A stretch of DNA of 64,000 bases, from contig NZ_BMBP01000003.1 in the NCBI RefSeq assembly GCF_014634745.1, forward strand, positions 1 through 64,000, in the 5' to 3' direction. Origin of the DNA: Leuconostoc pseudomesenteroides KCTC 3652. GTDB taxonomy: Bacteria > Bacillota > Bacilli > Lactobacillales > Lactobacillaceae. The notes beneath the pieces were generated by a model, which did not search any database, was not told the DNA's origin, and saw only the letters and a program-made list of their open reading frames with translations. Below, in pieces: positions 8,844 to 51,023 of this stretch; the first letter of the stretch is position 1; every line of letters starts with the position of its first letter. The position numbers and the translations under genes are program-made.

Positions 8844-8847
8844 AACG

Positions 8848-10392: not shown

Positions 10393-10396
10393 TTAG

Positions 10397-14164: not shown

Positions 14165-14197
14165 GATAAATTCCTTTCTACTGCTCACTTAAATTAA

Positions 14198-14845
14198 TTA
14201 TTGTTCTGCGATATTAATCAGTTCTTTACCGTCTTTGGCAGCATACAAAATATTTTGACTATTGTTCACACCCATCAGTTCTAATGTATATCCTGGTTTG
14301 AAAGCAGTACCAATTGTTTTAGAAGTTGTTTTTAATGAATTGGTGAAAGACTGCCAGCCGGTTGTGGCCGCTTGACTAGGGTGAGCCTCAACGACACTCA
14401 CACTCTCAGCCAATTGTGTTTTGGCATATAAACGCAGTTGAAATGCTTTCGTTTTTTCATCAAATGACACATCACCAATCTGTTGATAAGCTGTGTCTAG
14501 GCTCCGGGCATATTTTGTTTCTTGTAAGGAAAGTGCCTGTTGCTGATCTTCTGCTGATGTTGTTGGAATTTCAATCGTACGCGATCCGCTGACATTTTCA
14601 AAGCTCTTTTGCATGGCCGCTCTTTGACTAGCAGTCAGCTGCGCCACTTTTCTAGTAGTGTCTTGTCGTGATTTAATTTGTTTAATTGTTGCTGGTAACT
14701 TACTTGCACTCCAGACAGTACCACCAATCAGCAAGAGGGTTAAAAATAATGGCACAAAAAGTGTGCCATACTTGCGATAATTTTGAATTGTAAAAGTCAC
14801 CATCATTAACGTCAATATTATGAACATAATAAGTAAGAATATCAT
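14198..14845 (-). CDS. Membrane protein in the adhesin locus, unknown function
   Basis: A 215-residue protein with two N-terminal hydrophobic helices (~1-20 and ~31-50). A ~165-residue soluble part follows, starting with a charged, coiled-coil-like stretch (KQIKSRQDTTRKVAQLTASQRAAMQKSFE), then mixed alpha/beta sequence ending ELINIAEQ. GAGGGATTATA precedes the ATG. I do not recognise the family. It sits between the adhesin and gtfA, with only 33 bp to gtfA, so it is probably expressed with the glycosylation genes. Streptococcal adhesin loci have no obvious counterpart. A role in export or in holding the machinery at the membrane is inference from position only. Confidence 0.65.
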   Translation of the reverse strand: MIFLLIMFIILTLMMVTFTIQNYRKYGTLFVPLFLTLLLIGGTVWSASKLPATIKQIKSRQDTTRKVAQLTASQRAAMQKSFENVSGSRTIEIPTTSAEDQQQALSLQETKYARSLDTAYQQIGDVSFDEKTKAFQLRLYAKTQLAESVSVVEAHPSQAATTGWQSFTNSLKTTSKTIGTAFKPGYTLELMGVNNSQNILYAAKDGKELINIAEQ

Positions 14846-14874
14846 TATAATCCCTCTTTTAACCAGTTTAGCAT

Positions 14875-14924
14875 AAAAAAGTCTCCATAAATGTGGTTTA
14901 TATCACAATTATAGAGACTTTTTA
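14875..14924. terminator. Terminator downstream of the adhesin gene
   Basis: A long imperfect stem (AAAAAGTCTC paired with GAGACTTTTTT, extended inward) lies between the adhesin stop and the small membrane-protein gene. It can end most adhesin transcripts, with read-through or a separate promoter feeding gtfA-asp3. Confidence 0.75.
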
Positions 14925-14950
14925 TCTAATGATGCAATATCCTTAATAAA

Positions 14951-17900
14951 TTACTTTGTTTCTGCATCACCTTCTTTTTTACGACGTTTTGCTGCCAATA
15001 AGAAGCCCGAAATTAAGATCAGCGGCGTTAAAATCTCTAAGATTAACCTAATGTTGAATTTGTCACCCGTTTCATATTGTCCAATCAAAATACGACGTGC
15101 CGTAATAATTTTCGGATTTTCTGGTAACAGACCTTTCAGAACTGTTGCCTGACTGGGTACACTCAAGCTATTCGTGCTAGTTACTTTTTCGGCACTAATT
15201 GTTGGCGCCGTAGTAGTCAACTTTGCTGTCATATTCGAACCAGTTGTCGATTCAAGTGTTTGGACACGATCGGTTGCTTGATTTTTCATGACAATATTGC
15301 CAGTTGTGTCATCTACTTGTGATTTTGACTGACGTTCACTTGATACCTCTGACTGATGTAGACTAGTCAACGTTGAATCAAACTCACTCGTAAATTCGCT
15401 TACTGATTGCGATTTTGACTCACTCGTTGATGTCTCATCAGACGGCATCACGCGAACGCTTGTTGAGTCACTTTGGTTGACAATTGCCGTACTTTCGCTT
15501 AATGACGTGGCATCTGATAACTTAACACTAGTGGCATTATGCTCACTCACTATTATTGCGCTTGTTGATTCTGCTGTACTCAAACTGTCACTTGCTGAAA
15601 TACGTTCGCTGAGACTTGTTGATATTTCATCACTAGCTATCGTTGAAAGAGACTGACTTTCGTTTGCCTGTGAACTTGATGTGGACAAGCTTTCACTTGA
15701 TTTCGTAGAATTTAATTCACTATATTCAGAAGTTGATACATTTTCACTAGTGATTGTCGTACTAGTTGAATTTTTGGTGCTCAAACTTGCTGAATTTGAT
15801 GCTAAATCGCTAGCAACTGTTGAAGTCGATTCACTATTGGCTGTTGAATCACGCAATGAGACTGATGTGCTTGTTGAGCGACTGTCTGATACTGAATCAC
15901 TTGCTAGCTTACTATCGGATTCTGAAACGCTCGTTGATGTTACAGCACTTTCTGAAGTTGATTCACTCTTTGATGTTGAGTCACTGTTTGAGATTAAGTC
16001 ACTCTTTGACGTGGAATCGCTGTTTGAGATTGAGTCACTCTTTGATGTTGAGTCACTCTTGGTCGTCGAATCACTCAATGAAACTGATGTACTCATGGAG
16101 CGGCTATCGGAAACTGAATCACTTTGTGACGTGGAATCTGTCAATGAAACCGACGTGCTCATTGAGCGACTATCGGATTCTGAAACGCTCGTTGATGTTA
16201 CAGCACTTTCTGAAGTTGATTCACTCTTTGATGTTGAGTCACTGTTTGAGATTGATTCGCTCTTTGACGTTGACTCACTGTTTGAGATCGATTCGCTCTT
16301 TGACGTTGACTCACTGTTTGAGATCGATTCGCTCTTTGACATTGAATCGCTGTTTGAGATTGACTCACTCTTTGATGTCGAATCGCTATTTGAAACAGAC
16401 TCACTCTTTGATGTCGAATCACTATTTGAAACAGATTCACTCTTCAACGTTGAATCACTGTTTGAGATTGACTCGCTCTTTGATGTCGAATCGCTGTTCG
16501 AGATAAAGTCACTCTTTGACGTTGAATCGCTGTTCGAAATTGAGTCGCTCTTTGATGTTGACTCACTATTCGAGATAGAGTCACTCTTTGATGTCGAATC
16601 GCTGTTCGAAATTGAGTCGCTCTTTGACGTGGAATCGCTGTTTGAGATTGAGTCGCTCTTTGACGTTGACTCACTGTTCGAGATAGAGTCACTCTTTGAC
16701 GTTGACTCACTATTTGAAACAGATTCACTTTTGGTCGTTGAATCAGTCAATGAAACTGATGTACTCATGGAGCGGCTATCGGAAACTGAATTACTTTGTG
16801 ACGTGGAATCTGCCAACGAGACTGACGTACTCGTTGAACGACTGTCGGAAACTGAATCACTTGCTAGCTTACTATTGGATTCTGAAACGCTCGTTGATGT
16901 TACAACACTCGCTGAGGTTGACTCGCTCTTGGTCGTCGAATCAGTCAACGAAACTGATGTACTCATGGAGCGGCTATCGGAAACTGAATTACTTTGTGAT
17001 GTTGAATCTGCCAATGAAACCGAAGTGCTCATGGAACGACTATCAGATACCGATTCACTCGTCGCACTTGATGTTGATTCGCTTAACTTTGCGGAAGTTG
17101 ACTCACTCGCCACTGCTGATACCGATTCACTTGTTACACTTGATGTTGATTCGCTCAACTTTGCGGAAACAGACTCACTCGCCACTGCTGATACCGATTC
17201 ACTCGTTGCACTTGATGTTGATTCGCTTAACTTTGCGGAAGTAGACTCACTCGCTACTGCTGATACCGATTCACTTGTTGCACTTGATACTGATTCGCTC
17301 AACTTCGTGGATGACGACTCACTCGCTACTGCTGAATTCGATTCACTCGTTGCACTTGATACTGAACCACTCAACTTTGTTGATGACGACTCACTCGCTA
17401 CTGCTGATACCGATTCACTCGTTGCACTTGATACTGAACCACTCAACTTTGTTGATGACGACTCACTCGCTACTGCTGATACCGATTCACTCGTTGCACT
17501 TGATGTTGATTCGCTCAACTTCGTGGATGACGACTCACTCGCCACTGCTGATACCGATTCACTCGTCGCACTTGATGTTGATTCGCTCAACTTCGTGGAT
17601 GACGATTCACTGACTACCTTTGAATTCGATTCACTCGTCGCACTTGATGTTGATTCGCTCAACTTCGTGGATGACGACTCACTCGCTACTGCTGATACCG
17701 ATTCACTCGTCGCACTTGATGTTGATTCGCTTAACTTTGCGGAAGCAGACTCACTCGCTACTGCTGATACCGATTCACTTGTTGCACTTGATGTTGATTC
17801 GCTTAACTTTGTGGATGACGACTCACTCGCTGCCGCTGAATTCGATTCACTCGTCGCACTTGATGTTGATTCGCTTAATTTTGTTGAGACCGACTCACTC

Positions 17901-20900
17901 GCTGCCGCTGAATTCGATTCACTCGTCGCACTTGATGTTGATTCGCTCAACTTCGTGGATGACGACTCACTTGCTACTGCTGATACCGATTCACTTGTCG
18001 CACTTGATACTGAATCGCTTAACTTTGCGGAAGTTGACTCACTCGCCACTGCTGATATCGATTCACTTGTCGCACTTGATGTTGATTCGCTTAACTTTGT
18101 GGATGACGACTCACTCGCTACTGCTGATACCGATTCACTTGTTGCACTTGATACTGATTCGCTCAACTTTGTGGATGACGACTCACTCGCTACTGCTGAT
18201 ACCGATTCACTCGTCGCACTTGATGTTGATTCGCTTAACTTTGCGGAAGCAGACTCACTCGCTACTGCTGATACCGATTCACTTGTTGCACTTGATACTG
18301 ATTCGCTCAACTTTGTGGATGACGACTCACTCGCCACTGCTGAATCTGATTCACTCGTCTCTGTCGACACTGACTCACTCAAGCTTGCCGCAGTTGACAT
18401 TGACTCACTTTCGCTAATCGAAGTTGACTTCTCAATCGACATCTGCAAATGAACCGTAATCGTTGGCGTGGCATCGACAGAAGTGCCATCAGTACCAGCT
18501 GACATAACATAGGTTCCAGAACCATTATCGACGCTCACAAGTTGATAATCAGCGGTATCATATTGCTGTTCACCATTTAAAGTATCGGACCCGTCAACGT
18601 CAAACAAAGATCCCACTTGTCCACTAATAGTAGCCGTTGAAATCACACTACCAGTCTCATCATCCACATAATTGACAGTAGCACTTGTTGTTTCTGGCGT
18701 AGCTTCGATAATCAAATAATGGGTATATGAGCCGTCTGTTTCAGCAATCGCACCATTGATTGTGTAAGTTCCAGGAACCGTTGTGTTACCAAGGGTATCC
18801 CAATAAATGTGTTCACTTAGATTGTACCCAGCTGCAGAGAGTCCCATCGATGCAGCAGTTTCAGGACTATAACTATTGATAATAGCCTGCAAATTTGCAC
18901 CATCAATGACATCACCAATATGTGCAGAACCTTCAGCCAAATCAGAACCGTTCCCAGCCTCATTTACAATATAATATTTATTCCCAGCGGCGTCTGTAAA
19001 CTCTTTTAAAACAGAACTAACTGAATCTGTGTAGTCGCTTGCTTTGACAACCGTAATCAATTTCAAAGCAACTTGTTGTGCTGCACCATATACTTCATTA
19101 ATGGTCTGTGTTGAAACCACAGTTTGATTCTCATCAAAAGTTAGTGTGATTGCGTTAGTACCGTCAATTGCATTACCTTGCGCATCTTTACCCGGTGTAT
19201 GCAAATAGTATGTCTGCCCATTTGACGTGATCGTTGCTGGTACATCAATCGAGTTAACCGTATAAGTCGTACCATCATCAGAAGCCACGCCATCTGCACC
19301 TTGCCAAACAACAGCGCCACTTTGCGTCGTAACACCAGTTACGCCGTCGGTAGCTAGAGCGGCTGTTCCAGTTACAGTGGTTGTTGTAGCCGGCTGTAGT
19401 ATATTGCCACTCGCATCTTCGTACGTCAATTGAATATTAAACGTATTTACCTTGCTTGACGTGGTAATTTTGTGCGGTACATCAATCGTCACTGGCTGAT
19501 CAACTGTGCTATCATTGTCGAAGTTAACCGTTAAGACACCATTCGCATCAATCGTGCCACCAGTTACTACTGCTTGCGAAAAATCATATCCAGCAGGCAT
19601 TACTTTTGATAAATCAAAGGTTGCTGTGGTGCCAGATCCACCATAGACAGTGCTATCTGATGTCAAAGTGACAGCTTGCCCAGTAGTTGCATCGTTGACA
19701 GTGATAGTGGCTGTTTGAGCGACTAAATTAGCGTACGCTTGATTCAAATCTTGTTGTGACGCATTATCATTCGTCAAAACTTGTTGTGCATCAGTCAATT
19801 GCGCCGCCATCACACTTGCAAGATTGCTATTAGCAGTCGTTGTGTTCACCAACGCCTGTAACTGTGTCTTGTCAATTGCTTGATACGCAATTACAGTCGC
19901 TGACGCGCCAGTAACTGCGCCCGTATAGGTCGCCGAATAAGTTGTCGTCGCAAATTGTCCAGTCGCGACATCTGACACATCTGGCGTCCCAGTATCAAAA
20001 CCAGCTGTAACTGTAATGGTTGGTGCAATTTTTGTTGATTGCAAAGACTGAAGCATACTATTCAAACCATTGACTAAGTTAATGCTTGCTTGGTTAACAC
20101 TTTTCATCATGTTATCCACTGCTGTTGCGATACCTTGAGAGGCTGTATTAGCAACACCTGTTACAACATCTGTTAAAGTACCACCTATAACACCACCGCC
20201 TAATAGACCCCCAAGAGCACTTACAACCTGATTTCTAAATGTTGAAGAAGAAATATCTGATGTTCCCAAATAAGCAACCTCAGAATTATAACGAATGGTT
20301 GCTTGATCCAACACCTTTTGTTCCTCAGTAATCAATGTCTCTAAGACTGACTTAGCATACATTGAATTACTATCAGTACCACTTATAGCGTTCATAGCAT
20401 TCGTTAACGTTTTAATATAACCTGCAGCTAATGTTTTCACTTGTGAATCAACTGTAACAGCGACACCCTGTGAAATTAATTTCAAAGCTGTCGTATTTAA
20501 GTCACCTTTTAACGCACCATTGAAAGCGTTGTAGACAACAGCATACCATCCAATAACAAAATTAGGTACAGTCGTACTAGCATAAGTGTTAATGTCAGAT
20601 TGAATATTAGACATATTAGCGGTTAGTTGTGCCATCAGTGCATCGATGTTGCTATGAACCAATTCATTCGGATCTAATGAAATATTTGTTGAATACGTGC
20701 CATCACCATTGTCAACAACCGGGTTGACATATGTCGCGGAAGTAATATTTTCTGGTTTTAAAATATTCATAAGTGATGACAAAGTCGCTTGAATCGCTGT
20801 TAAGTCAGCATTATTCTGTCCAAAGGTCAAAGCAGGAATCATACCACCAGCATTGCCATTTTTCATACTGCTTATCATCTGTTGCGCTTCCGCACCATTA

Positions 20901-22618
20901 ATATCGTTAGCCAATGATGAAGCATATGACTGTACCGTTATCCACATTGATTTATCAGCTGTGTTAGAAGCAGCGGCTGCATTATTACCTGCTGTAGTGG
21001 CATAACTCGTCAACCAACTCTGCGGATTACTGTTGAAGTTCAAAAAGGAACCCGCAGAGGTACTAAATTTCAAATTACTATCGGTGTTAATGTTTGACAT
21101 GCCATTTGTTAAAGCTGTGACATAAGAACTAACAGCGTCAGTTGCTGAAGCAGTTGCTGCTGAAGTAACGGCAGTATCAGCATTGTAATTGACATTGACT
21201 AACACTGTGTCCGCGTTTAACAAGGCAGCGTATGAATCAGCAAGCGATGTTGCTTGAGATTGCGCCAAAGATACTGCTGCTGATTCTGCACTACTCGTGG
21301 CAGCAGATTGCGCGTAAGCGTTAGAAGCTTGAGCACTCGTAGCCGCAATTGCGGCAGAATTAGGTGCAGCATTAAGGGCATTAAGTGCTGATGTGGCTGC
21401 AACTGCGGCGCTTGATGTTGCGGCTGAGGCTGCCTCCCATGATGTCTCTAGACTAGCAATTGCTTGTGTCGTCACACCAGACGCCCATTGCTTAGCAACA
21501 CCAGTATTTGAACCATCCCAAGCAGTCCCAAAAACAGCCAAAAATGTTGCCTTATTAGCTGTGGCATTTACTAGAGCAAATCCAACTGCAGCTGCTGTCG
21601 TGCTGGCAGCGCTATAATAACTATCATATGCTGCTTTTAAATTACCACTGTTTGCGGATGCCAATGCGGCATTCAATGAAGATAATATCGCACTGTAACT
21701 ATCTGAGCTTTTATTAAGGTTAGATATAGTAGTCGTGATAATTGCTGCCATTGAAGCGCCATTACTACTTGCAATAGCAGCCTGTGAGCTTTGTGCACTT
21801 GCATAACTAGTTTGTGCAGCAGCATTAGAATTCTGTGCTGCTAGCAGAGCAGCAGATTGAGCAGTAGCTGCAGCCGAGTACGAATTAGCCAAAGAGGCCG
21901 CCGCTGAATTAGCTTGAGCAGCAGAGCTGGCAACGGTGGCCACACTTGCAGCAGCACTGCTATTTGCAGAGGTAGCCGCGGAACTAATCGTTGCCAATGC
22001 GTCTGATGTCACAGTAGCAGTCGAACCACCAGCCGTGGTTACTGTACTGCCACTTTGTGTCGGCGATACCAATGAAGAGGTGGCATTACTTGGCGTGGTG
22101 ATAGTTACCGCCACACTACCGTTATTGTATGTTGAAGCTGCACTGCTTGATGTAGCACTTGCACTTGTCGTCACATCAACAGCATTAGACGTTGCATCAG
22201 CATTTTTATCTACTGAAATGGCATTTTGGTCATTCGCGTCAGCACTAACTGTGTTATCTGTGGCAACTGAATCAAGCGTTGGGTAGGCACTGCTCCCCAA
22301 AGAACCAGTGGCGTAAGAATCACTGGCTGAATTAGCTGATACTTGTGCATTGGCTGAAGACACTGCTTCACTGGTTGTATTAGAAAGTGTGTTGTCAGCG
22401 GCACTTGCTGGACTAGCTGCTGCTGAAGCCGCCATTGCGGTACTACCAGTGGTTGTGTCTGCACTAACTTTATCAGTGTCGTCAATGAGAGCCATCCCCG
22501 TCAAAACCATCAACGTTGACAATCCAGCTGTAATCCATTGCCGACCAGATTTATACATTTTATAACGTTTTACTTCATTTGTTGGTCGAGAGTTGCGACC
22601 ATCATATTTTGCGCTCAT
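14951..22618 (-). CDS. Giant serine-rich-repeat surface adhesin
   Basis: A 2555-residue secreted adhesin. The N-terminus carries the long KxYKxGKxW signal (KMYKSGRQW at 20-28, hydrophobic core, probable cleavage after VSA near 54), the usual tag of accessory-Sec substrates. A ~250-residue Ala/Ser-rich stretch follows, then a non-repeat region to ~1400 with MucBP-like and beta-sandwich segments ([22 protein letters not shown]). Two serine-rich blocks follow: about 18 copies of a 24-residue unit (TKLSEST...AVAS) and then a 12-residue unit ([12 protein letters not shown]). The C-terminus has a hydrophobic helix and AKRRKK tail but YETGD instead of LPxTG. I start at the ATG at 22618 (AAAGGAAG); an in-frame TTG lies 2 codons upstream. 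It is glycosylated presumably by GtfA/GtfB and exported with the Asp proteins. Confidence 0.93.
15950..16740. repeat. 36-bp tandem repeats encoding SRR block 2
   Basis: Tandem imperfect 36-bp units encode 12 residues of the [13 protein letters not shown] type on the minus strand. Synonymous differences between units show they are maintained at protein level rather than recently copied. Boundaries are approximate. Confidence 0.85.
17040..18370. repeat. 72-bp tandem repeats encoding SRR block 1
   Basis: About 18 imperfect 72-bp units encode a 24-residue repeat with a central TKLSEST or AKLSEST on the minus strand. Copy number is likely to vary between strains. The repeat also leaves a long spurious open frame on the opposite strand. 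Confidence 0.88.
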
Positions 22619-22800
22619 AATCAACTTCCTTTTCGTTTAGTCAATCTTCTACTTTAAATGTATCACTACTAATACTATTTATGATATTTTATGCCTATAT
22701 ATAACCACATATTTTACACATTATTCATATATTATACATACTTACAAAAAGAAAGCATATTTTTAGACTTAACTATGACTTTTTAATGAATTTTAAGCAC

Positions 22801-37500: not shown

Positions 37501-37710
37501 ATGATATGTGGATAAGGACAATTTTTGTCTATGGTTCAAATATAGCAGAGTTCTGTCATGATTATGTAAATATCAGATAAAGATTTCATCATCATTATAA
37601 TATTAACTGAATATACACAATCCTGTAATTAACTATGTCAAGTTTGATTACACAAAAAAATAGTATTTCAATTCAAATTACTCGCTTGATAAGAGTCATA
37701 ATTTTGTGCA

Positions 37711-37727
37711 GTTCACACTTTGTTCAC
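37711..37727. promoter_or_regulatory. Two phased GTTCAC repeats upstream of the BspA-like gene
   Basis: GTTCAC occurs at 37711-37716 and 37722-37727, spaced 11 bp (one helical turn), 67 bp before the surface-protein ATG. The rest of the 355-bp divergent region (37439-37793) is AT-rich and holds the two promoters and nothing else I can name. Confidence 0.35.
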
Positions 37728-37793
37728 CAATAATTCGTCTAGTCTTCTTCCCCCCTAGTAGAATGGAGCAAAAGGGTACTTTGGAGTAAAATT

Positions 37794-40364
37794 ATGAGAC
37801 GAAAACAAGCAGGCTACTTACCAATATTAATTGCAGTATTAACGCTCGCCGGCCCTGCACAAACCGTAACGGCTGCAGAATTGACGACCACCGATGACGT
37901 TAAAACGGATAAAAAGCTACGTCTAAAAAATGACGGTCGTTCTGACCTACAGGAATTAACCCAACGGATTGCTACTGGCGATACGGGTGATGGTCAGCCA
38001 GCGGCGGCGGAACCTAATAAGCCCGACACTCTCGAAACCCCCGAAGTAACAGAACCTGAACAGCCTAATGAAACAGACCCACCAGCTGAACAACCAGCAC
38101 TGCCAACAACAGACAACAAGCCGCCTACGTCTGGTAAGGCACCTCGATCAATAACAACGAACACTAATGGCAGCAGTACTTGGACATTTGATTCAGATAC
38201 TGGTTTGTTAGTTTTTTCAGCGGGGCAATTATCGCAGAGAATTGATACAAATCTAGCAGAAAATAGCTTAACTGCCTCACAAGTTAAAAAAATTCAATTT
38301 AATGGTGATGAGGGTAAGGTCACAGTAGACCCAAGCGTCCCCCATTTATTTGATAACCTAGATCAACTCACTGATTTTATTGATTTACAAAATTTTGATA
38401 CGACCAATGCGACGTCAATGTCATATTGGTTTACTAATACTAAAGGGCTTACCAATCCTGACTTGAGCTCATTAAATACCAGTAATGTACTTTATATGAC
38501 TGAAATGTTTCATGATAGTGGTGTTACTAATTTGGACCTAAGTAATTGGAATGTCAATCAAGTGACAACATTTCAGGACATGTTTTTCTGGGCAGATAAG
38601 TTAACGACTTTAAATCTATCCACTTGGGGGGCTGATCGTACAGTTGACTCCGTTAATATGGGTGCAATGTTTTCTAACGCGTCTGCCTTGACCAACTTAG
38701 ACTTGACGAATTTTAAGACAAAAAATGTCACGAATATGTCTTCTATGTTTCGTAATACGGGATTAATCAGTCTTAATCTCAGTACCTGGGACGTCACAAA
38801 AGTGAAAGAATTTCAATACATGTTTTATAGCTCAGCTGCCTTGGCCAACTTGAATTTATCTGATTGGGGCATTGCCCGTATAGCTGATTCAATTTATATG
38901 AATTATATGTTTTATAACACGTCCGCCTTGACCAACTTAAACTTGATGAATTTTAAGACAAAAAATGTCACAGGCATGTCTTATATGTTTTACGGTAGTG
39001 GTATCACTAATTTGGACTTAAGCAATTGGAATGTTGATCAAGTGACAACATTTAATTGCATGTTTGCTGAGGCAAAACACCTAACAACCTTAGATCTATC
39101 TAATTGGGGTGTTGCCCGCACCGCTGATTCTGTTAATATGACTTATATGTTCTCTAATACAAGTGCGCTAACTACTTTAAAACTGACAAATTTTAAAACC
39201 ACCAATGTCACGACTATGGCTTATATGTTTCGCGGAACCGGTATCACTCATTTGGACTTAAGCGATTGGAATGTTAATCAAGTAACAACATTTGATAACA
39301 TGTTCGCGGAGGCAAAGAACCTAACGACCTTGAATTTATCTAATTGGGGTGTTGGCCGCACGGCTGATACAATTATTATGCGCTATATGTTCTTTAATGC
39401 CAGTGCGCTAACTACCTTAAACTTGACAGATTTTAAAACCACCAATGTCACGAATATGGCTCGTATGTTTGTAGGAACTGGCTTAGCTGAATTAGATTTA
39501 AGCCACTGGGATGTTTCAAAAGTGACCACATTTGAAAGTATGTTTCTTGATAGCAGTATCACTAATTTGGACTTAAACGCTTGGGATGTTTCAAAAGGGA
39601 CCAAATTTTTTAACATGTTCTATAATGCGTCTAAACTGAAGACATTGGACTTATCAGGGTGGTATACTTCCGGTGCTGATGTGACCGCGATGTTTGGCAA
39701 GACTACCAGCCTCTGGAAAATCACCCTCAGTGCAAATATGAAGTTTACCGGTAGTCCTATGTTCTGGTCAGCTCCGGCTATTGGCACAACAATTAGCGAT
39801 AACGGACAAAATTATAAAACTACAGCCGCGTCTTGGCAAATTGTTGGTAACGGCACTGATCATAATCCAGCAGGAAACATGGTAACAACCGACCAAATGT
39901 ACGCTGACCGATCTGAAACAATCACCTACGTTTGGGCGCAAGCGCCTACTTTTGATGGCGTTGCTAACCTTACCTTTGACACACTTGGCGCTGGTGCTTT
40001 CCGTAATGGTAACAAGCCATTGGCAAGTAATATGTCAACTGGCGCAGTTAGTCTTATCAACTTGGATGCCAGCAAATCGTACAAAGTGTCCGTAGCGCAA
40101 ACAAGTGATTGGAACACATCTGGTCAATCCGCAAAAATTTCAAAGAATGATTTGAGCATTCAATATGGTCAATCTAGTTTAGAAAGTAGTGTTGACTTTT
40201 GGACTGGGACTTCCGCCAGTAGTCAAAACAATATTATGTTCAATCATAACACCAGCAACTCATTTAGCATTTGGTTAAATCCTAACACGGTGATTGATAC
40301 AAAACTATTGGGGAAACAATTAGCATCTGAACTCACTTGGACGTTAAGTGAAACACCCCAGTAA
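37794..40364 (+). CDS. BspA/DUF285-repeat surface protein with C-terminal WxL domain
   Basis: An 856-residue secreted protein. Order: signal peptide (1-28, cleavage near VTAAE); proline/glutamate-rich stalk (~65-120, PEVTEPEQPNETDPPAEQP); about 14 DUF285-type leucine-rich units of ~23-30 residues (LTTLDLSNW, NVTNMSSMFRN) from ~170 to ~630; and a C-terminal WxL-type domain (~715-856) ending LTWTLSETPQ. DUF285/BspA repeats mediate adhesion in other bacteria, and WxL domains bind peptidoglycan without a covalent link, which explains the lack of LPxTG. The first WxL motif is degenerate (DWNTS). No WxL-cluster partners (DUF916, small LPxTG protein) are nearby. It is a single-gene unit with its own terminator. 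Confidence 0.87.
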   Translation: MRRKQAGYLPILIAVLTLAGPAQTVTAAELTTTDDVKTDKKLRLKNDGRSDLQELTQRIATGDTGDGQPAAAEPNKPDTLETPEVTEPEQPNETDPPAEQPALPTTDNKPPTSGKAPRSITTNTNGSSTWTFDSDTGLLVFSAGQLSQRIDTNLAENSLTASQVKKIQFNGDEGKVTVDPSVPHLFDNLDQLTDFIDLQNFDTTNATSMSYWFTNTKGLTNPDLSSLNTSNVLYMTEMFHDSGVTNLDLSNWNVNQVTTFQDMFFWADKLTTLNLSTWGADRTVDSVNMGAMFSNASALTNLDLTNFKTKNVTNMSSMFRNTGLISLNLSTWDVTKVKEFQYMFYSSAALANLNLSDWGIARIADSIYMNYMFYNTSALTNLNLMNFKTKNVTGMSYMFYGSGITNLDLSNWNVDQVTTFNCMFAEAKHLTTLDLSNWGVARTADSVNMTYMFSNTSALTTLKLTNFKTTNVTTMAYMFRGTGITHLDLSDWNVNQVTTFDNMFAEAKNLTTLNLSNWGVGRTADTIIMRYMFFNASALTTLNLTDFKTTNVTNMARMFVGTGLAELDLSHWDVSKVTTFESMFLDSSITNLDLNAWDVSKGTKFFNMFYNASKLKTLDLSGWYTSGADVTAMFGKTTSLWKITLSANMKFTGSPMFWSAPAIGTTISDNGQNYKTTAASWQIVGNGTDHNPAGNMVTTDQMYADRSETITYVWAQAPTFDGVANLTFDTLGAGAFRNGNKPLASNMSTGAVSLINLDASKSYKVSVAQTSDWNTSGQSAKISKNDLSIQYGQSSLESSVDFWTGTSASSQNNIMFNHNTSNSFSIWLNPNTVIDTKLLGKQLASELTWTLSETPQ

Positions 40365-40458
40365 AAAAAACAGTAGATTTTCAATTATTTTTCTAAAAGT
40401 TGTCAAGTGAAGGACACGACTTATTTTAGAGAATGTTGCAACACCATTTTAATACACA

Positions 40459-40492
40459 AATAGGCTAACCACTTTGTGGGTCAGCCTATTTT
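40459..40492 (+). terminator. Terminator after the BspA-like gene
   Basis: AATAGGCT-ACC pairs with GGT-AGCCTATT around CACTTTGT and is followed by TTTTG, ~95 bp past the stop. Confidence 0.8.
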
Positions 40493-40795
40493 GATTATCA
40501 TAAGTTTCTACTTACTGTTGCAACATGTTTTATCAATACTTTGAGTCTCATTGCACATTGCTTCCAAGTTGGCTCAAATATCCAAGACAAATCAAAGTGA
40601 TGCCATTCGAATCTGATTAAGGATTTATAGGTGAGTACGACTCTTGATTTTCGCGAAATCACATAAGCTCTGCATAGAAGCAACCACGCTATAATTCTCA
40701 AACGCTTTTGAAACTAAAAATTTATGAATCAGTGCACAATACACGCAGTTGGTTCAAAAAATATTTTCTCCATTGCGATTTCTATCCATGAGAAA
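40493..40795. other. Gene-free stretch
   Basis: About 300 bp with no credible gene. A 67-codon open frame on the minus strand (40498-40701) lacks a ribosome site and known motifs; it may be chance or a decayed remnant. Nothing else is seen before the tRNA terminator. Confidence 0.4.
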
Positions 40796-40832
40796 ATAAA
40801 AAAGCTTTGAATGAATAATCATTCAAAGCTTT
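40796..40832 (-). terminator. Terminator of the tRNA-Leu/tRNA-Thr unit
   Basis: A 13-bp perfect stem AAAGCTTTGAATG and complement, loop of 6, followed by a T run on the minus strand, directly after tRNA-Thr. Confidence 0.9.
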
Positions 40833-40841
40833 CATAAATTA

Positions 40842-40914
40842 TGCCGACCGCCGGGCTCAAACCGGCGACCCCCTCATTACTAGTGAGGTGCTCTATCAAC
40901 TGAGCTAGGTCGGC
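40842..40914 (-). tRNA. tRNA-Thr(AGT)
   Basis: 73 nt; acceptor GCCGACC/GGTCGGC with discriminator A, D stem GCTC/GAGC, anticodon stem CCTCA/TGAGG around CTAGTAA, T stem GCCGG/CCGGC. The anticodon is AGT. A34 outside tRNA-Arg is uncommon in bacteria and implies deamination to inosine or superwobble. It is transcribed after tRNA-Leu. Confidence 0.93.
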
Positions 40915-40988
40915 AGATCAAAGTACTCAAGTATTATATCAAATAATACCAGATACCTCAATATAATAATATGGCGGCGACCATATTA

Positions 40989-41070
40989 TACGGGTGACAG
41001 GAATCGAACCTGCACGGATTTCTCCACTGGAACCTAAATCCAGCGCGTCTGCCAGTTCCGCCACACCCGC
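40989..41070 (-). tRNA. tRNA-Leu(TAG)
   Basis: 82 nt with the long variable arm of class II tRNAs. Acceptor GCGGGTG/CACCCGT (G1-U72 wobble), anticodon stem CTGGA/TCCAG around TTTAGGT (anticodon TAG), T loop TTCGATT. It reads CUA and other CUN codons and probably shares a transcript with tRNA-Thr 74 bp downstream. Confidence 0.94.
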
Positions 41071-41180
41071 ATGTCTAACACAACCCTTTAATTTTACTGG
41101 AAAAATGATTGTACGTCAAGCATTTATTTACCTTTGATCGCAAATAGGCGTAACATGGAGTTAGCGAGGTGACACAACAA

Positions 41181-41531
41181 ATGACAAAAAGAAACGTTGC
41201 AACAGTATTCGAAGCAAAACACAATATTGAATTATTATACTTATCGCTACAATCTAAGCTTATTGCCCCAGGGATTCGTGATATCACTGATGTTTTACTA
41301 CAAGTTAACAAACAAATAGACACCAGTAAAAACCCTGAAGCCTTAGTGAACAGAATGGTTAATTATATTCGTATCACAGCCTCGTCTGAAAAGCTTCATT
41401 TTTCAAAAGCTGACGAAAAATTGATTATTGATTTAGGCGTGATTGGTCAACAAGCTGGTCTGAATGGTCAATATATGGCTGATTTTTCTGATAAATCACA
41501 ATTCTATAGTTATACCGACGCAAATAAATAG
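41181..41531 (+). CDS. Class IIa-type bacteriocin immunity protein
   Basis: A 116-residue cytoplasmic four-helix protein of the pediocin/enterocin A immunity type. The third-to-fourth helix and tail, RMVNYIRITASSEKLHFSKADEKLIIDLG...Y..F, aligns with PedB (NKIASQALVDKLHFTAEENKVLAAI). Such proteins protect a producer by locking the bacteriocin-bound mannose PTS. I start at the ATG 11 nt after GAGG; an in-frame GTG 12 nt earlier is less likely. No pediocin-type YGNGV structural gene is adjacent; instead it converges on two genes for larger secreted proteins ending YGGWSCDYAxVAxGAAW. It ends at the shared repeat-borne terminator. Confidence 0.82.
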   Translation: MTKRNVATVFEAKHNIELLYLSLQSKLIAPGIRDITDVLLQVNKQIDTSKNPEALVNRMVNYIRITASSEKLHFSKADEKLIIDLGVIGQQAGLNGQYMADFSDKSQFYSYTDANK

Positions 41532-41557
41532 ATTGGAATTAGCAGCTCTAATCATTC

Positions 41558-41607
41558 ATCAACAAAAAAGGTTCGATACACTATTCTCTGTATCGAACCT
41601 TTTAATC
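41558..41607. repeat. 50-bp direct repeat, left copy, carrying a bidirectional terminator
   Basis: It begins ATCAACAAAAAAGGTTCGAT and ends TTTTAATC. The hairpin pairs GGTTCGATACA with TGTATCGAACC. 48 of 50 positions are identical to the copy at 43207-43256 in the same orientation. It terminates the immunity gene (plus) and the secreted-protein operon (minus). Confidence 0.92.
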
Positions 41608-41614
41608 GCAATAA

Positions 41615-42246
41615 CTACTTATAACCCTTGCCAATACCTAACCAAGCAGCGCCCTTGGCTACATTGGCGTAATCACAAGACCAACCACCATAAAATGCAG
41701 AGGTTATATTCCCTAATTCCGACCAATATTTAACTGTTTTCTTCCCACTATTTTTTTTAGTAGCATAGTGCCATACATCTGGCGCAATTTTTTGATTAAC
41801 AGCGCTTTGCCGATTAGGAAATGAGTCATTACACCAAAAATTGGTTTTCAATCGATTGATATTTTCAAACCCGGCAACACTGATTTGTAACCCAAAACCG
41901 TTAGTAATTGCATACTTAAATAACGCTTTTAGCGTCGTATTATTATGACTATATTGTGTCGTAATACCATTTCTGGCGGTTAATTTAACATCTCGATCTA
42001 ACACACTGTTTAAGAATTTATACGCCGCCACACTATTGTGATAGCTCCATGCTAAAGTATTTTTATACTTAACATCTGCTTTTGGAAAGTCACTCTGTCT
42101 AGTAACAGCACTTTTAGTAGCTAAGTGAACAATTTCATTATGATGAGTAATGTTGGCTTTCACAGATTGAAAGTTTGTTATTATGAGTGCGATAAACACA
42201 CTTAAACTAACAGTACCAACGCGGATTAGTATATTTTTTTATACAT
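41615..42246 (-). pseudogene. Secreted paralogue, frameshifted in its signal peptide
   Basis: The intact part (from 42199, read from an in-frame GTG) encodes 194 residues closely related to the upstream 259-residue protein: TLAWSY.NSV, NGFGLQIS, WCNDSFPNRQSAV, APDVW, K.VKYWSELG and FYGGWSCDYANVAKGAAW. The natural ATG (42246, after GGAG) reads MYKK and then runs into a stop because the A run at 42234-42240 has seven A. With eight A the frame would continue as NILIRVGTVSLSVFIALIIT...VKA, an ideal signal peptide. It is therefore either a decayed gene, a phase-variable one, or a sequencing slip. It lacks the propeptide of its paralogue. Function unknown; its place beside an immunity gene suggests an antibacterial protein. 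Confidence 0.75.
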
Positions 42247-42293
42247 GTCATTTCTCCAACCAAGTATAAACTATTGCTAATTATGTTTAGCGC

Positions 42294-43073
42294 CTATTTG
42301 TGTCCCTGACCAACGCCTGCCCAAGCAGCACCTCTTGCTACTCCTGCATAATCACAAGACCAACCACCATAAAAAGCTGTGGGGATTGCTCCCAACTCAG
42401 ACCAATTTTTTACAGTAACTTTTCCCTTGTTACCACTATTCGCAGTATCCCACACATCTGGAGCTGAAGCAATGTGGACCGCAGATGTTCGGTTAGGATA
42501 CGAATCATTACACCACCAACTTGTTGAACCAGATGTTGGGTTGATAAAACAACCATTACTTATTTGTAATCCAAAACCGTTATCTGTGACCCAATCAAAA
42601 TACGCTCTGACAACAGTATTCTGCGCTGGAGTTAAAGAAACCGAAAGACCACTTCCTAAACTAAAGGAAACAGTAGAGGCGGTATTATTACTTAAATAAT
42701 TAAAGGCCCTCACTGAATTTTGATAACTCCACGCTAACGTACCCTTTATCTGACTATCGGCGAGTGGCATAACAGCAGCACTACTAGCACCACCAACATC
42801 ATCGGTCAAGTCCTGTTTCGCCTCTTCCTTGCCTTCAATTACAACACTTCCATCGACTTTTTTAACTTTTTGTAGTCCCAACGCCTCTTGGCTTTTTAGA
42901 CTATTTAAATATGTCTGTACGCCCCGTTCCCTGAGAATCTCTTCCCCAACCGTGCCATTATTTTTTACAGTCAATGTATCATCAGCTTTAATAAATGATG
43001 TACTTGAAAAGCCCATTAATACTATAACCACTCCTGCAAAAACAGAAAATTTAACCTTCTTATGCTTTTTCAT
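42294..43073 (-). CDS. Secreted cysteine-containing protein, candidate large bacteriocin
   Basis: A 259-residue secreted protein I cannot place in a named family. Residues 1-31 are a signal peptide (KKHKKVKF, hydrophobic core, IKADD). Residues ~32-110 look like a propeptide rich in charge with DDVGG at 91-95, a possible processing site. The C-terminal ~148 residues form the domain shared with the downstream paralogue. It has cysteines at 175, 188 and 240; the last two are conserved and may form a disulfide. It ends FYGGWSCDYAGVARGAAW.GVGQGHK. The promoter overlaps phased TGTGA repeats. It heads a two-gene operon flanked by direct repeats and facing a bacteriocin immunity gene. An antibacterial role is inference. 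Confidence 0.7.
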   Translation of the reverse strand: MKKHKKVKFSVFAGVVIVLMGFSSTSFIKADDTLTVKNNGTVGEEILRERGVQTYLNSLKSQEALGLQKVKKVDGSVVIEGKEEAKQDLTDDVGGASSAAVMPLADSQIKGTLAWSYQNSVRAFNYLSNNTASTVSFSLGSGLSVSLTPAQNTVVRAYFDWVTDNGFGLQISNGCFINPTSGSTSWWCNDSYPNRTSAVHIASAPDVWDTANSGNKGKVTVKNWSELGAIPTAFYGGWSCDYAGVARGAAWAGVGQGHK

Positions 43074-43108
43074 GACTAAAATACTCCTTTTGTATTAACT
43101 TAATTCAT

Positions 43109-43137
43109 ACTATAATCATAAAGATAACATTTTTCAC
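43109..43137 (-). promoter_or_regulatory. Promoter of the secreted-protein operon
   Basis: Minus strand: -10 TATAGT (43109-43114), 17-bp spacer, and -35 GTGAAA (43132-43137), which departs strongly from TTGACA. The weak -35 coincides with the nearest TGTGA repeat, as expected of an activator-dependent promoter. Confidence 0.6.
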
Positions 43138-43180
43138 ATATAATACACAAATATTCACAAAGAATCACATATAGTTCACA
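43134..43180. promoter_or_regulatory. Five helically phased TGTG repeats
   Basis: On the minus strand TGTG (mostly TGTGA) occurs five times with 11, 10, 10 and 11 bp spacing. Alternate copies (TGTGAAC, TGTGAAT, TGTGAAA) are exactly 21 bp apart. Direct repeats at 21-bp period beside -35 are typical of LytTR response-regulator sites of bacteriocin systems. Confidence 0.6.
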
Positions 43181-43206
43181 CTAAATTCAAAATAAATTAT
43201 TTCAAA

Positions 43207-43256
43207 ATCAACAAAAAAGGTTCGATACACTATTTTCTGTATCGAACCCTTTAATC
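43207..43256. repeat. 50-bp direct repeat, right copy, carrying a terminator
   Basis: Same sequence and orientation as the copy at 41558, with two substitutions (one in the hairpin loop, one at the 3' edge of the stem). It acts as the terminator of the DUF6508-like gene on the minus strand and marks the right edge of the secreted-protein module. Confidence 0.9.
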
Positions 43257-43277
43257 ACCCTATTTTAGTCGCAATTA

Positions 43278-43652
43278 TTATGCTTTTTGTTTTAAGTCAC
43301 GTTCTCTTACTAACAAATCAAGTAAAATTCCATTTTGCACCAACGCTTGCCACATCCCCGGCGTGTACTTTTCACCACGAATAATCGCTGATACAATCGC
43401 TCTGATCAAGCTATAATCCTGAGAAGTATTCGCCAGTTGTGCCACATCTTCTTCTGCCAAACCTTCATGAAATTGGTGCTGGCGTAGCGTACGATCAAAA
43501 TTTCTATCATATTCATCAGACTTAAAATAACTCTGCGCTAACGTCAAAATATCGGCTGTATAAGACGGATATGTCGTCTCATGCCATGGAATAGCCTGCC
43601 CTTTTGCCTGCCGTAAAATACTAATATTTTTGTCAAAATCAAATGCTTGCAT
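43278..43652 (-). CDS. DUF6508-like small protein
   Basis: A 124-residue soluble helical protein without signal peptide or membrane segment. The C-terminal part SLIRAIVSAIIRGEKYTPGMWQALVQNGILLDLLVR resembles the DUF6508 core (RAI.TAIIRGERF..G.W...I..G). No catalytic motif is visible and the role is unknown. It lies 31 bp after the AI-2E-family gene on the same strand and ends at the right-hand direct repeat. Confidence 0.6.
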   Translation of the reverse strand: MQAFDFDKNISILRQAKGQAIPWHETTYPSYTADILTLAQSYFKSDEYDRNFDRTLRQHQFHEGLAEEDVAQLANTSQDYSLIRAIVSAIIRGEKYTPGMWQALVQNGILLDLLVRERDLKQKA

Positions 43653-43682
43653 TGCGATACCTCTTTCCGTGGTATCATTGTA

Positions 43683-44786
43683 TCACTTATCTTTAGTAAG
43701 TTCACGCATTTGTGTTCCAAATTTGATAACAGTTCTAACCACAGCATAGACTGGCACTACCAAAATCATACCAACGATACCTTTCAAGTTACCCGCTACC
43801 ATCAGTAAAATCATAATTGTCAGCGGATGAATCTGTAATGATTTACCAATCACATTTGGATAAATAAAGTTGCCATCCAATTGCTGAACAACTGTCATAA
43901 CAACTAATACCAAAATCATTTGCTTCCAAGATTGCGTTCCTGCCACTATTAAGGAAGGAATGACACCAATCCAAGGGCCTACATAAGGGACAATATTAGT
44001 AATACCGGCGATGACGCCTAAAAGCCAAGCATAAGGTTGACCGATGATTAGGTAGCCAATCGCCATCGCCACCCCGACAAACAGCATTTCAATCGCTTGA
44101 CCAGAAATATACTTTTCAATCGTGTGATCCATCTTATTCGTCAAATCTGCGACATTATCAGCAAAGCGATCAGGAAAAAGACGTTGTAAAGCTGGCAAGA
44201 GACGGTTACCATCACTTAACATATAGAATAAAACAACCGGTATTGTCACTAAGTTAATGGTCACTGACGTGATTGTTGAAATCACATTGCCTAGCGTCCC
44301 AGCCGTAATAGTCAAAAATGACGCCGCATATTTACCAACGGCACTTTTCACCTCATCAACATCAATCGACAAATGCAAACTGTTAAACCATTTACTTTGC
44401 AATGTATCATTGACATACGTTTGAACCGTCTTTGCAAATCCCGGCAAAGCATTGATCAAATTGGTCATTTCACGAACCAAGGTTGGCACCAGCAATATTA
44501 AAGCCCCAACAATCACCGTTAAAAACAGCACAAACGTTATAATCACGGCCAGTTGATGTGGCATTTTGTGATTTTTAATGGTGATTTTTTCAAGTAAGGT
44601 CAAGATAGGTTTCAAGACATAGTACAAAAAACCGGCCACAATTAACGGTACGAATACCGTTGAAATGAAAACTGATATTGGCTGCATCAAAAAATCAAAC
44701 CGTGACACAATCCAAATTAGTGCCGACAGTGCTAATAATTCTATTGTCCAAAAAAACAAATTTTTATATTTCAGATTCGGAAACAT
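43683..44786 (-). CDS. AI-2E/PerM family membrane transporter
   Basis: A 367-residue membrane protein of the AI-2E transporter (UPF0118) family with seven to eight helices. Typical parts are FDFLMQPISVFISTVFVPLIVAGFLYYVLKP, GVIAGITNIVPYVGPWIGVIPS and QLDGNFIYPNVIGKSLQIHPL. Members export AI-2 or act in sodium(lithium)/proton exchange; the substrate cannot be told here. It overlaps the mutY end by 23 nt, implying co-expression. Confidence 0.88.
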   Translation of the reverse strand: MFPNLKYKNLFFWTIELLALSALIWIVSRFDFLMQPISVFISTVFVPLIVAGFLYYVLKPILTLLEKITIKNHKMPHQLAVIITFVLFLTVIVGALILLVPTLVREMTNLINALPGFAKTVQTYVNDTLQSKWFNSLHLSIDVDEVKSAVGKYAASFLTITAGTLGNVISTITSVTINLVTIPVVLFYMLSDGNRLLPALQRLFPDRFADNVADLTNKMDHTIEKYISGQAIEMLFVGVAMAIGYLIIGQPYAWLLGVIAGITNIVPYVGPWIGVIPSLIVAGTQSWKQMILVLVVMTVVQQLDGNFIYPNVIGKSLQIHPLTIMILLMVAGNLKGIVGMILVVPVYAVVRTVIKFGTQMRELTKDK

Positions 44787-48473: not shown

Positions 48474-48761
48474 TCAAATACTGAACAAAACATCACGACC
48501 GCCCATATCATTTGCGCCAATATAGCGCTGAGATAATTCTACAAGAAACTTTGTCGATGCAGATGTCAACTGTCGCTCAACTGCAAGTAAAGATAAACTA
48601 TCTTTGAGCGACGCAGCCACAGCGCGATCATTTTGGCTTTTTTCTAGTTGGGTTTTATTGCTAACAAATATGTCGCGTTCATTACTTGTAATGGTTTCAT
48701 CTAAAATTAAATCAACCAAATTTTCTAGCAACCAATTTTTATCTGGTATCTGCCATGTCAT
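48474..48761 (-). CDS. Second bacteriocin immunity-like protein
   Basis: About 95 residues, all helical, resembling the enterocin A immunity family: LLENLVDLILDETITSNERDIFVSNKTQLEKSQND, then SLKDSLSLLAVERQLT and KFLVELSQRY. These fit the LltelydLI...eR..l..aK..Le, sL..LA....L pattern of the family. I start at the ATG 9 nt after GGGAGG (48761). No bacteriocin gene is adjacent, so it is an orphan immunity gene protecting against others' bacteriocins, or unrelated in function. It is monocistronic. Confidence 0.6.
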   Translation of the reverse strand: MTWQIPDKNWLLENLVDLILDETITSNERDIFVSNKTQLEKSQNDRAVAASLKDSLSLLAVERQLTSASTKFLVELSQRYIGANDMGGRDVLFSI

Positions 48762-48908
48762 CACGATACGCCTCCCATTTTGCTCAATGAACAGCACGAT
48801 ACGCTATTCTTATCGTTTTAATTAACAATGATTATTTATATCATACTACTTTTTATCAGTGACAGATTATTAAAAAAAGAAAAATGTATATCATATTTAA
48901 CAGCACAC

Positions 48909-50333: not shown

Positions 50334-51002
50334 TTAGTGTGTCACGAATTGACCGGTGGCAAGATTCGGTGTGCCACCGTGAAGATCATTTTTGCTAGTA
50401 CCCACTTGGTGTAAATAATAGGCATACTTTAATTTCAAATCGCTAATGATATTCTGATTCAGTTTTGTTGGTTTAACAGCCTTTTTTTCCATTTTATATA
50501 GATGAGCGGCAATTAAAAGATCGCTGTCAGTTAATTTTTTTGATTTAATTTGTGAATCTGACAAAATCACATCATACTTTTTCGCCTTCAGCAGCATATG
50601 TTTGACCACGACAGTCTGATAAGTTAACGCTTTTCTCGTTGAAAAAGAACGATTGGTAAAATTAATTGTGTCATTATAATCGCCATTCCCTAGATATTTT
50701 GCAACGTAAAGTTCCCAAGTAGTGCCATTTGTCAATGAAAATTGATATTTGTTAGCAGAAACATTGACTTTCTGCGTTTCTGTACCGATAAAATTTTCAG
50801 TAGTTGCAATCGTGACATCTTGTGGCGCATTACTGGATGTTACACGAACAATAGGCGCATGAAAACTATGATTAACCACGATAACTTTTTTTGGTTCAAA
50901 GCCAAACAGTAGTACGTTAACTAATAATACGGCAAAATACATTAGCATGACAAAGACCGACATGGCAATGATCATTTGATATTTATTTGATAATAGTCTC
51001 AT
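50334..51002 (-). CDS. Membrane-anchored extracellular protein, unknown function
   Basis: About 222 residues: one N-terminal helix (IIAMSVFVMLMYFAVLLVNVLLF) and a ~190-residue soluble part, probably outside the cell. It has beta-rich sequence (IVVNHSFHAPIVRV, TTENFIGTETQKVNVSANKYQFSL) and then helices (SDSDLLIAAHLYKME-like). I choose the second ATG (51002) because the first sits in the tail of the upstream terminator. I do not recognise the family. It follows the LysM gene on the same strand but is separated by a terminator. Confidence 0.6.
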   Translation of the reverse strand: MRLLSNKYQMIIAMSVFVMLMYFAVLLVNVLLFGFEPKKVIVVNHSFHAPIVRVTSSNAPQDVTIATTENFIGTETQKVNVSANKYQFSLTNGTTWELYVAKYLGNGDYNDTINFTNRSFSTRKALTYQTVVVKHMLLKAKKYDVILSDSQIKSKKLTDSDLLIAAHLYKMEKKAVKPTKLNQNIISDLKLKYAYYLHQVGTSKNDLHGGTPNLATGQFVTH

Positions 51003-51023
51003 CTCATCTCTTTTCTCAAACAT

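What the first reader, a model, noticed from the sequence alone, without database searches (positions are those of the whole stretch)
41181..43256. Candidate undescribed antagonism module: two paralogous secreted proteins, an immunity gene and flanking direct repeats
A pediocin-type immunity gene converges on an operon for two related secreted proteins. They share TLAWSY, NGFGLQIS, WCNDS(Y/F)PNR, WSELG and the end FYGGWSCDYAxVAxGAAW, with two conserved cysteines. No known class IIa structural gene (YGNGV) is nearby. The first protein has a signal peptide and a probable propeptide, as expected of a larger secreted bacteriocin. The antibacterial role is inferred from the neighbour and architecture only.
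Basis: partly seen in the sequence, partly recalled or inferred. Interest (0 to 1): 0.82.

Follow-up and report, generated by a model that had tools for sequence, protein, structure and literature searches.

The report
Secreted bacteriocin-like pair beside unrelated immunity gene
Two related secreted-type proteins of unknown fold belong to a rare, patchy lactic-acid-bacterial family whose other members mostly sit beside a tiny membrane protein, as bacteriocins sit beside their immunity proteins; the classic immunity gene next door here looks like an older, unrelated neighbour.

Summary
P2's ribosome-site ATG is out of frame with its signal peptide.

The proposed link to the immunity gene fails. 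A congener has that gene (95% identical) at the same site with one terminator and no P1/P2; seven others have neither; a genome of another genus has the P1-P2 operon and no EntA_Immun match.

Antagonism gains other support. P1/P2 belong to an undescribed family, found convincingly in four genomes of two genera, multicopy and partly decaying. Nine of 14 family ORFs are followed at once by a membrane-protein gene, mostly 47-79 aa (fixed criterion: 7 of 14 against 3 of 192 control genes). At one locus a toxin-type gene was replaced and its small gene left behind. The P1/P2 clade lacks a partner, and its three loci are damaged.

Best reading: a new family of signal-peptide-exported, bacteriocin-like proteins with small membrane immunity proteins. 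A weak local resemblance to C39-like peptidases is unresolved. No activity was tested.

The parts
42294..43073 (-). P1: 259-aa protein; signal-peptide-like start (about 42981-43073), then a propeptide-like stretch, then the conserved C-terminal domain (about 42297-42746)
   Evidence: ORF, ribosome site AAAGGAG, family alignments; signal peptide and propeptide by eye
41615..42199 (-). P2: 194-aa ORF, paralog of the P1 core; frame open from 42238, but the ribosome-site ATG at 42246 is out of frame, before a run of seven A (42234-42240)
41558..41607 (.). left copy of the 50-nt direct repeat = hairpin, called as a terminator on the - strand (end of P2)
43207..43256 (.). right copy of the 50-nt direct repeat = hairpin, called as a terminator on the - strand (end of the DUF6508 gene)
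   Evidence: the single copy in G112 equals it over the 30-nt hairpin
41608..43206 (.). stretch present here and absent from the same site in G112 (P1-P2 cassette)
43133..43180 (-). array upstream of P1: four TGTGA and one TGTGT at 10-11-base steps, overlapping a weak -35/-10-like pair (43137-43109); possible response-regulator site
   Evidence: (0.02 expected in the window for the three-unit pattern)
41181..41531 (+). EntA_Immun gene; neighbour, not shown to belong to the cassette
40841..41071 (-). tRNA-Thr (40841-40915) and tRNA-Leu (40988-41071): left side of the insertion site
43278..43652 (-). DUF6508 gene: right side of the insertion site

Best explanation
P1 and P2 belong to a previously undescribed family of signal-peptide-exported, bacteriocin-like proteins. 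Most members are encoded with a very small, membrane-spanning protein directly downstream, which I take to be the producer's immunity protein; a membrane immunity protein suggests action at the membrane or cell envelope of close relatives. P1-P2 is a clade that has no such partner. It came as a cassette into the gap between a tRNA-Leu gene and a DUF6508 gene, beside an EntA_Immun gene that was already there, and is decaying, as in the two other genomes that hold it. Shown: homology, gene order, the empty site, the small downstream genes, the damage. Inferred: export, antibacterial action, immunity role of the small proteins, direction of the insertion, regulation by a response regulator.
For: No relative over a cut-off in the libraries searched. 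Convincing members in 2 of 19 genomes of the own genus and 2 of 28 of g18, with 3, 2, 8 (fragments included) and 4 matches. Hydrophobic ORF of 40-110 aa starting -15 to +27 nt from the stop: 7 of 14 family ORFs, 3 of 192 control genes, Fisher p 1.3e-7; two more have a membrane-protein gene that the criterion misses (L036 79 aa; L013 209 aa). Stricter earlier criterion: 4 of 14 against 1 of 192. At the orthologous radA-gltX gap G000 has one long-form gene with its small gene; G112 keeps only the two ends of that long-form gene and a frameshifted copy of its small gene, and has two other modules; small proteins there are homologous (43%). Empty site in G112; 7 of 7 other congeners that match the DUF6508 flank have the tRNAs directly beside it and no EntA_Immun match, and none of the 17 other congeners has a family match at E 1e-6. 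P1/P2 clade well supported and partnerless. Damage in three genomes.
Against: No activity, expression or export was tested. P1/P2 themselves have no partner, so the toxin reading reaches them only by homology. L037, outside the P1/P2 clade, has no partner either. Two of the nine genes with a partner (L012 long form, L013) have their signal-peptide-like start in another frame and may be broken. The small proteins match no known immunity family. The 14 family ORFs are related, so the Fisher test overstates independence; the looser rule was set after seeing the data; controls were not limited to secreted proteins, include orthologs of one another and one fragment of the broken G018 P1. The AlphaFold models are weak (mean pLDDT 58 and 61). 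The weak resemblance to C39-like peptidases could mean another function. Deletion from G112 by recombination between the repeats is not excluded as the origin of the empty site.
Confidence: 0.53

Rival explanations
1. Secreted surface or matrix proteins (adhesin, wall or sugar binding) with a small membrane helper for export or anchoring; no killing.
For: Signal-peptide-like starts, aromatic-rich conserved core, no catalytic family over a cut-off. The small partners have no match to immunity families.
Against: No anchor motif seen by eye; the small partners vary more than I would expect of an export helper (mean column identity 31%; inference); strong turnover and damage; a small gene left behind where its long-form gene was replaced.
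Confidence: 0.2
2. Secreted enzymes, perhaps a remote papain-like (C39-type) fold, with the small membrane protein as regulator or immunity. This does not exclude a toxin role.
For: The two weak hits outside the family, G152 (E 1.8e-4) and G478 (E 6e-4), are both Peptidase_C39_2 proteins. Against 191 proteins compared with the family profile they rank directly below the family rows, scores 32.5 and 30.8, the best of the rest 21.3. Aligned together they give hhalign probability 65% over 28 columns around YYNDSW. The GWSC cysteine is kept in 13 of 14 rows.
Against: The match is local and lies behind the C39 histidine; the C39 cysteine and histidine have no conserved counterpart in the family (by eye). 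No family row matches a C39 model in Pfam at E 1. The two hits were picked from nearly 800 searched genomes and are 44% identical to each other, so they are not independent.
Confidence: 0.15
3. One reading: P1/P2 are bacteriocins whose immunity protein is the convergent EntA_Immun gene.
For: Adjacency in the window; the EntA_Immun assignment is firm.
Against: Ortholog at the same site without P1/P2 in G112; no EntA_Immun match in G018, which has P1-P2; in G373 the one EntA_Immun match lies on another contig than any family gene (draft assembly); the gene is not in the operon.
Confidence: 0.08
4. The P1-P2 cassette alone is a relic with no present role (compatible with the best explanation for the rest of the family).
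For: All three P1-P2 loci are damaged.
Against: P1 here is intact, with a ribosome site and an ordered upstream array. The P2 frameshift is one homopolymer run in a draft assembly and could be an error or a phase switch.
Confidence: 0.3

Closest known systems
Pediocin-like immunity proteins (EntA_Immun, PF08951)
   Same: The gene at 41181-41531 is a member by Pfam and by match to enterocin A immunity protein.
   Different: No class IIa structural gene passes the cut-off in the genome, so it looks like an orphan immunity gene; it is not tied to P1/P2 in relatives.
Sec-exported bacteriocins such as lactococcin 972 (Sec export recalled)
   Same: Signal-peptide-like start and no double-glycine leader (by eye).
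   Different: No match to a bacteriocin model in Pfam; P1 is larger and has cysteines, whereas a passage of PMC8538875 says lactococcin 972 lacks them.
Class IIb bacteriocins with small membrane immunity proteins (CbnZ, 42 aa, one transmembrane domain; passage of PMC8538875)
   Same: A very small membrane protein belonging to the bacteriocin genes.
   Different: Here the exported protein is far larger, with a signal-peptide-like start and a conserved domain of about 140-180 aa of no known family.
Polymorphic toxin-immunity systems (PMC3482391, start of abstract seen in search listings)
   Same: Patchy, multicopy, exchangeable modules and a left-behind small gene.
   Different: The listing describes diverse C-terminal toxin domains; here the C-terminal part is the conserved one.
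Peptidase_C39_2 proteins (PF13529)
   Same: Weak local match around a YNDSW motif.
   Different: Catalytic cysteine and histidine without conserved counterpart; no Pfam match.

Membership tests
EntA_Immun (PF08951), for 41181-41531 | profile match over the curated cut-off | tested here: met
   41.5 bits, cut-off 22.1; 2bl8 E 3.5e-15
Class IIa (pediocin-like) bacteriocin, for P1/P2 | Bacteriocin_II profile / YGNGV peptide | tested here: not met
   No PF01721 match in P1 or P2 up to E 10; no match over the cut-off in 4 genomes
Bacteriolysin (class III) with a known wall-hydrolase domain, for P1/P2 | recognised hydrolase domain by sequence profile | tested here: not met
   No Pfam or NCBIfam domain over a cut-off in P1/P2 or in the other members scanned; an unknown hydrolase fold is not excluded
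Peptidase_C39_2, for the family | profile match and catalytic Cys/His | tested here: inconclusive
   No Pfam match in 14 rows at E 1; weak local profile match to two C39_2 proteins
Bacteriocin-immunity type gene pair, for the wider family | small membrane protein gene directly downstream | tested here: met
   9 of 14 family ORFs by inspection, one of the nine with a 209-aa membrane protein; 7 of 14 against 3 of 192 by fixed criterion
Bacteriocin-immunity type gene pair, for P1/P2 | small membrane protein gene directly downstream | tested here: not met
   None directly behind P1 or P2; all 4 rows of the P1/P2 clade lack it
Bacteriocin | killing of related bacteria, relieved by immunity protein | not testable with these tools
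   needs an experiment
Known fold | structural match | tested here: inconclusive
   Model mean pLDDT 61; no Foldseek match at E 0.001, best E 0.35; best Z 6.1

The most novel reading that the evidence does not exclude
A new family of signal-peptide-exported bacteriocins, about 190-330 aa as precursors, of unknown fold (GFG...NDS...P..W...FYGGWSCDY), each typically paired with a divergent 47-79-aa membrane immunity protein and exchanged as modules between lactic acid bacteria of two genera; the P1-P2 branch has lost or never had its partner and travelled as a cassette to a gap beside tRNA genes.
Probability: 0.48. Interest if true: 0.72.

Novelty: new variant of a known kind. Interest (0 to 1): 0.57.

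Why it matters
If true, it adds a family of large, signal-peptide-exported antibacterial proteins to bacteria in which most known bacteriocins are small peptides (recalled). It would not be found by tools that look for known bacteriocin or immunity profiles. It also shows how a neighbouring immunity gene can mislead: comparing the same site in relatives separates the two.

Tried and rejected
Known families: nothing over a cut-off for P1/P2 in Pfam or NCBIfam, and no match in PDB sequences, phages, plasmids or viral contigs (other members); PHROGs gave only E 0.058 or worse. The nearest to a cut-off is VCBS_repeat on the N-terminal part of P1 (12.4 bits, cut-off 15.5); other weak hits (DASH_Ask1, TolA, ECF) differ from member to member.

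C39-like peptidases: I first put aside the two weak hits, G152 and G478, as chance, the second without having read its frame (one search printed the other strand). On checking, both are Peptidase_C39_2 proteins and stand above the other proteins compared. I now keep this as a rival, raised from 0.10 to 0.15, and lowered the best explanation from 0.55 to 0.53, the surface-protein rival from 0.22 to 0.20 and the novel case from 0.50 to 0.48.

Fold: two AlphaFold jobs gave mean pLDDT 58 and 61, with the conserved C-terminal part worst. Foldseek's first row was the B subunit of a type II heat-labile enterotoxin at E 0.35, probability 0.23, then mostly acetyltransferases; VIA-align 2 put sliding clamps on top at Z 4-6. 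None was used. No papain-like fold was noted in the rows shown, which proves nothing.

Repeats as a mobile element: the hairpin has two copies in the own genome, one in G112, none in G018 or G373, so no repeat-borne mobility is claimed.

Composition: GC of the cassette is 0.35-0.39, little different from its surroundings, so it gives no support for recent transfer; GC skew is stronger there (to -0.33).

Literature: seven searches. Among the titles listed (not all hits: 15 of 79, 8 of 44, 8 of 96) none names such a family; the motif GGWSCDY is in 0 papers of the library. I saw search listings, and passages of PMC8538875 and PMC2806384; no paper was read whole.

Full report
What is in the window. 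The EntA_Immun gene (41181-41531 +), P2 (41615-42199 -) and P1 (42294-43073 -) are as described. The first is a real member of the enterocin A immunity family. P1 has a clear ribosome site and a signal-peptide-like start. P2 is 52% identical to P1 over P1 residues 100-259. Behind P2's ribosome site the ATG at 42246 leads to a stop after a run of seven A; the P2 frame opens only at 42238. So P2 is probably disrupted, phase-variable or misassembled here. The flanking direct repeats fold as strong hairpins and are called as terminators of the - strand: the right one ends the DUF6508 gene, the left one P2.

The site in relatives. G112, a congener, matches window 40816-41606 (93%) and 43207-44197 (94%), with a single terminator where the window has P1 and P2. 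Its EntA_Immun ortholog is 95% identical. G112 has two family genes, but on another contig. Nine of 19 congeners match the DUF6508 flank: the own genome, G112 and seven others. In these seven of seven the tRNA-Thr/tRNA-Leu pair lies directly beside the DUF6508 gene with no EntA_Immun match in the locus, no match to the window's EntA_Immun protein in the genome and no family gene in the genome at E 1e-6. The simplest order is: EntA_Immun gained in the ancestor of G000 and G112, then P1-P2 gained in G000. Loss of P1-P2 from G112 by recombination between the repeats is possible too.

The family. Profile searches found convincing members in 2 of 19 genomes of the own genus and 2 of 28 of genus g18. 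Wider samples added two weak hits: family 5 of 397 genomes, one of them the weak G152; order 4 of 395, one of them the weak G478; phylum 1 of 398, the own genome. A first search with P1 alone had 3 of 201. Matches: 3, 2, 8 and 4, fragments included. Invariant in 14 rows: Y, GFG, ND, P, W, F, GWS.

Small genes downstream. I first saw these by eye and then counted. With ATG starts -15 to +27 nt from the stop, 40-110 aa and a hydrophobic 19-residue stretch of 1.5 or more, 7 of 14 family ORFs and 3 of 192 other genes in the same stretches have one (Fisher p 1.3e-7). A stricter earlier rule on hydrophobicity, with a ribosome site but a wider gap, gave 4 of 14 and 1 of 192 (p 6.6e-5). The looser rule was set after seeing the data. 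Two further genes have a membrane-protein gene that the rule does not count: L036 (79 aa, less hydrophobic) and L013 (209 aa), making 9 of 14. Two of the nine, L012's long form and L013, have their signal-peptide-like start in another frame. Without a partner: P1, P2, L012's P2, L038's P2-like gene, L037. On the tree the first four are one supported clade (100/99); the label 'partner' needs 2 changes against 4.3 in shuffles, 11 of 500 shuffles as low; only 3 of 11 inner branches are well supported and L015_b is a long branch. Some small proteins are related to each other (43%; 35%). None matches a Pfam or NCBIfam family over its cut-off (those in Pfam only). The best sub-cut-off hit is KPN_two_small, a small membrane protein family (20.9 bits, cut-off 33).

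Turnover. At the gap between the radA-like and gltX-like genes (names by eye), G000 (L016) has a 302-aa member plus a 76-aa small gene. G112 (L015) has two other modules between the first about 31 and last about 19 bases of that 302-aa gene, and still carries the sequence of the 76-aa gene, with a shorter T-run that shifts its frame. A small gene outliving its larger neighbour is what one expects of toxin-immunity pairs (general knowledge).

Damage of P1-P2. In G018 the P1 ortholog (64% identical) has a TGA and a TAG inside, next to an intact P2, which is 66% identical to the window's P2 over 169 residues. In G373 only the last codons of a P1-like gene remain before a P2-like gene whose end is altered. 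In the window P1 is intact and P2's start is not. A partnerless toxin pair could be costly; this is inference.

A weak lead to C39-like peptidases. The two weak hits outside the family, in G152 and G478, both prove to be Peptidase_C39_2 proteins. In a comparison of the family profile with 191 proteins they rank directly behind the family rows (scores 32.5 and 30.8; next best 21.3), and together they give hhalign probability 65% over 28 columns around the motif YYNDSW. They were chosen by the searches, are 44% identical to each other, and the family has no conserved counterpart of the C39 cysteine and histidine (by eye). No family row matches a C39 model in Pfam. It may be a remote papain-like fold, or a shared short motif. 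I leave it open.

Regulation. Upstream of P1 lie four TGTGA and one TGTGT in 10-11-base steps. Four TGTGA were reached in 1 of 10,000 mononucleotide shuffles of that 150-base stretch, and a three-unit pattern occurs once in the window against 0.02 expected. The pattern was chosen after seeing it. The array overlaps a weak promoter-like pair, but such pairs are no more frequent here than in shuffles (5 against 9.1). Direct repeats at one helical turn are typical of OmpR-type response regulators (recalled). Of the other upstream regions printed none has such an array; L036 has two TGTGA 11 bases apart.

Judgement. Antagonism is somewhat more likely than not for the family and rests on gene order and evolution, not on activity. 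The EntA_Immun neighbour is best read as an independent orphan immunity gene. For P1/P2 themselves the function is inferred through homology only.

Noticed in passing
window 48474-48797 -: A second EntA_Immun gene (27.6 bits, cut-off 22.1), with a match at a like distance in G112; a third match lies on G000 contig C8. Three immunity-type matches and no class IIa structural gene over the cut-off.
   Followed up: partly
window 37609-40815: A stretch with the 856-aa PARCEL-repeat surface protein gene has no match in G112 between two matching blocks, so both sides of the tRNA pair differ in gene content.
   Followed up: no
window 50407-51010: Another stretch without a match in G112 between two matching blocks.
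   Followed up: no
window 7719-22624: Very long serine-rich repeat surface protein (2557 aa) next to glycosyltransferase-like and accessory-secretion-like genes (by eye).
   Followed up: no
L037:8403-9011: A family gene without partner lies directly behind mannose-type PTS genes (by eye); such PTS proteins are receptors of class IIa bacteriocins (passages of PMC8538875). Possibly coincidence.
   Followed up: no
L014:5814-6072: Remnant of a family gene (last codons) with its own 53-aa small membrane ORF beside an intact module.
   Followed up: partly
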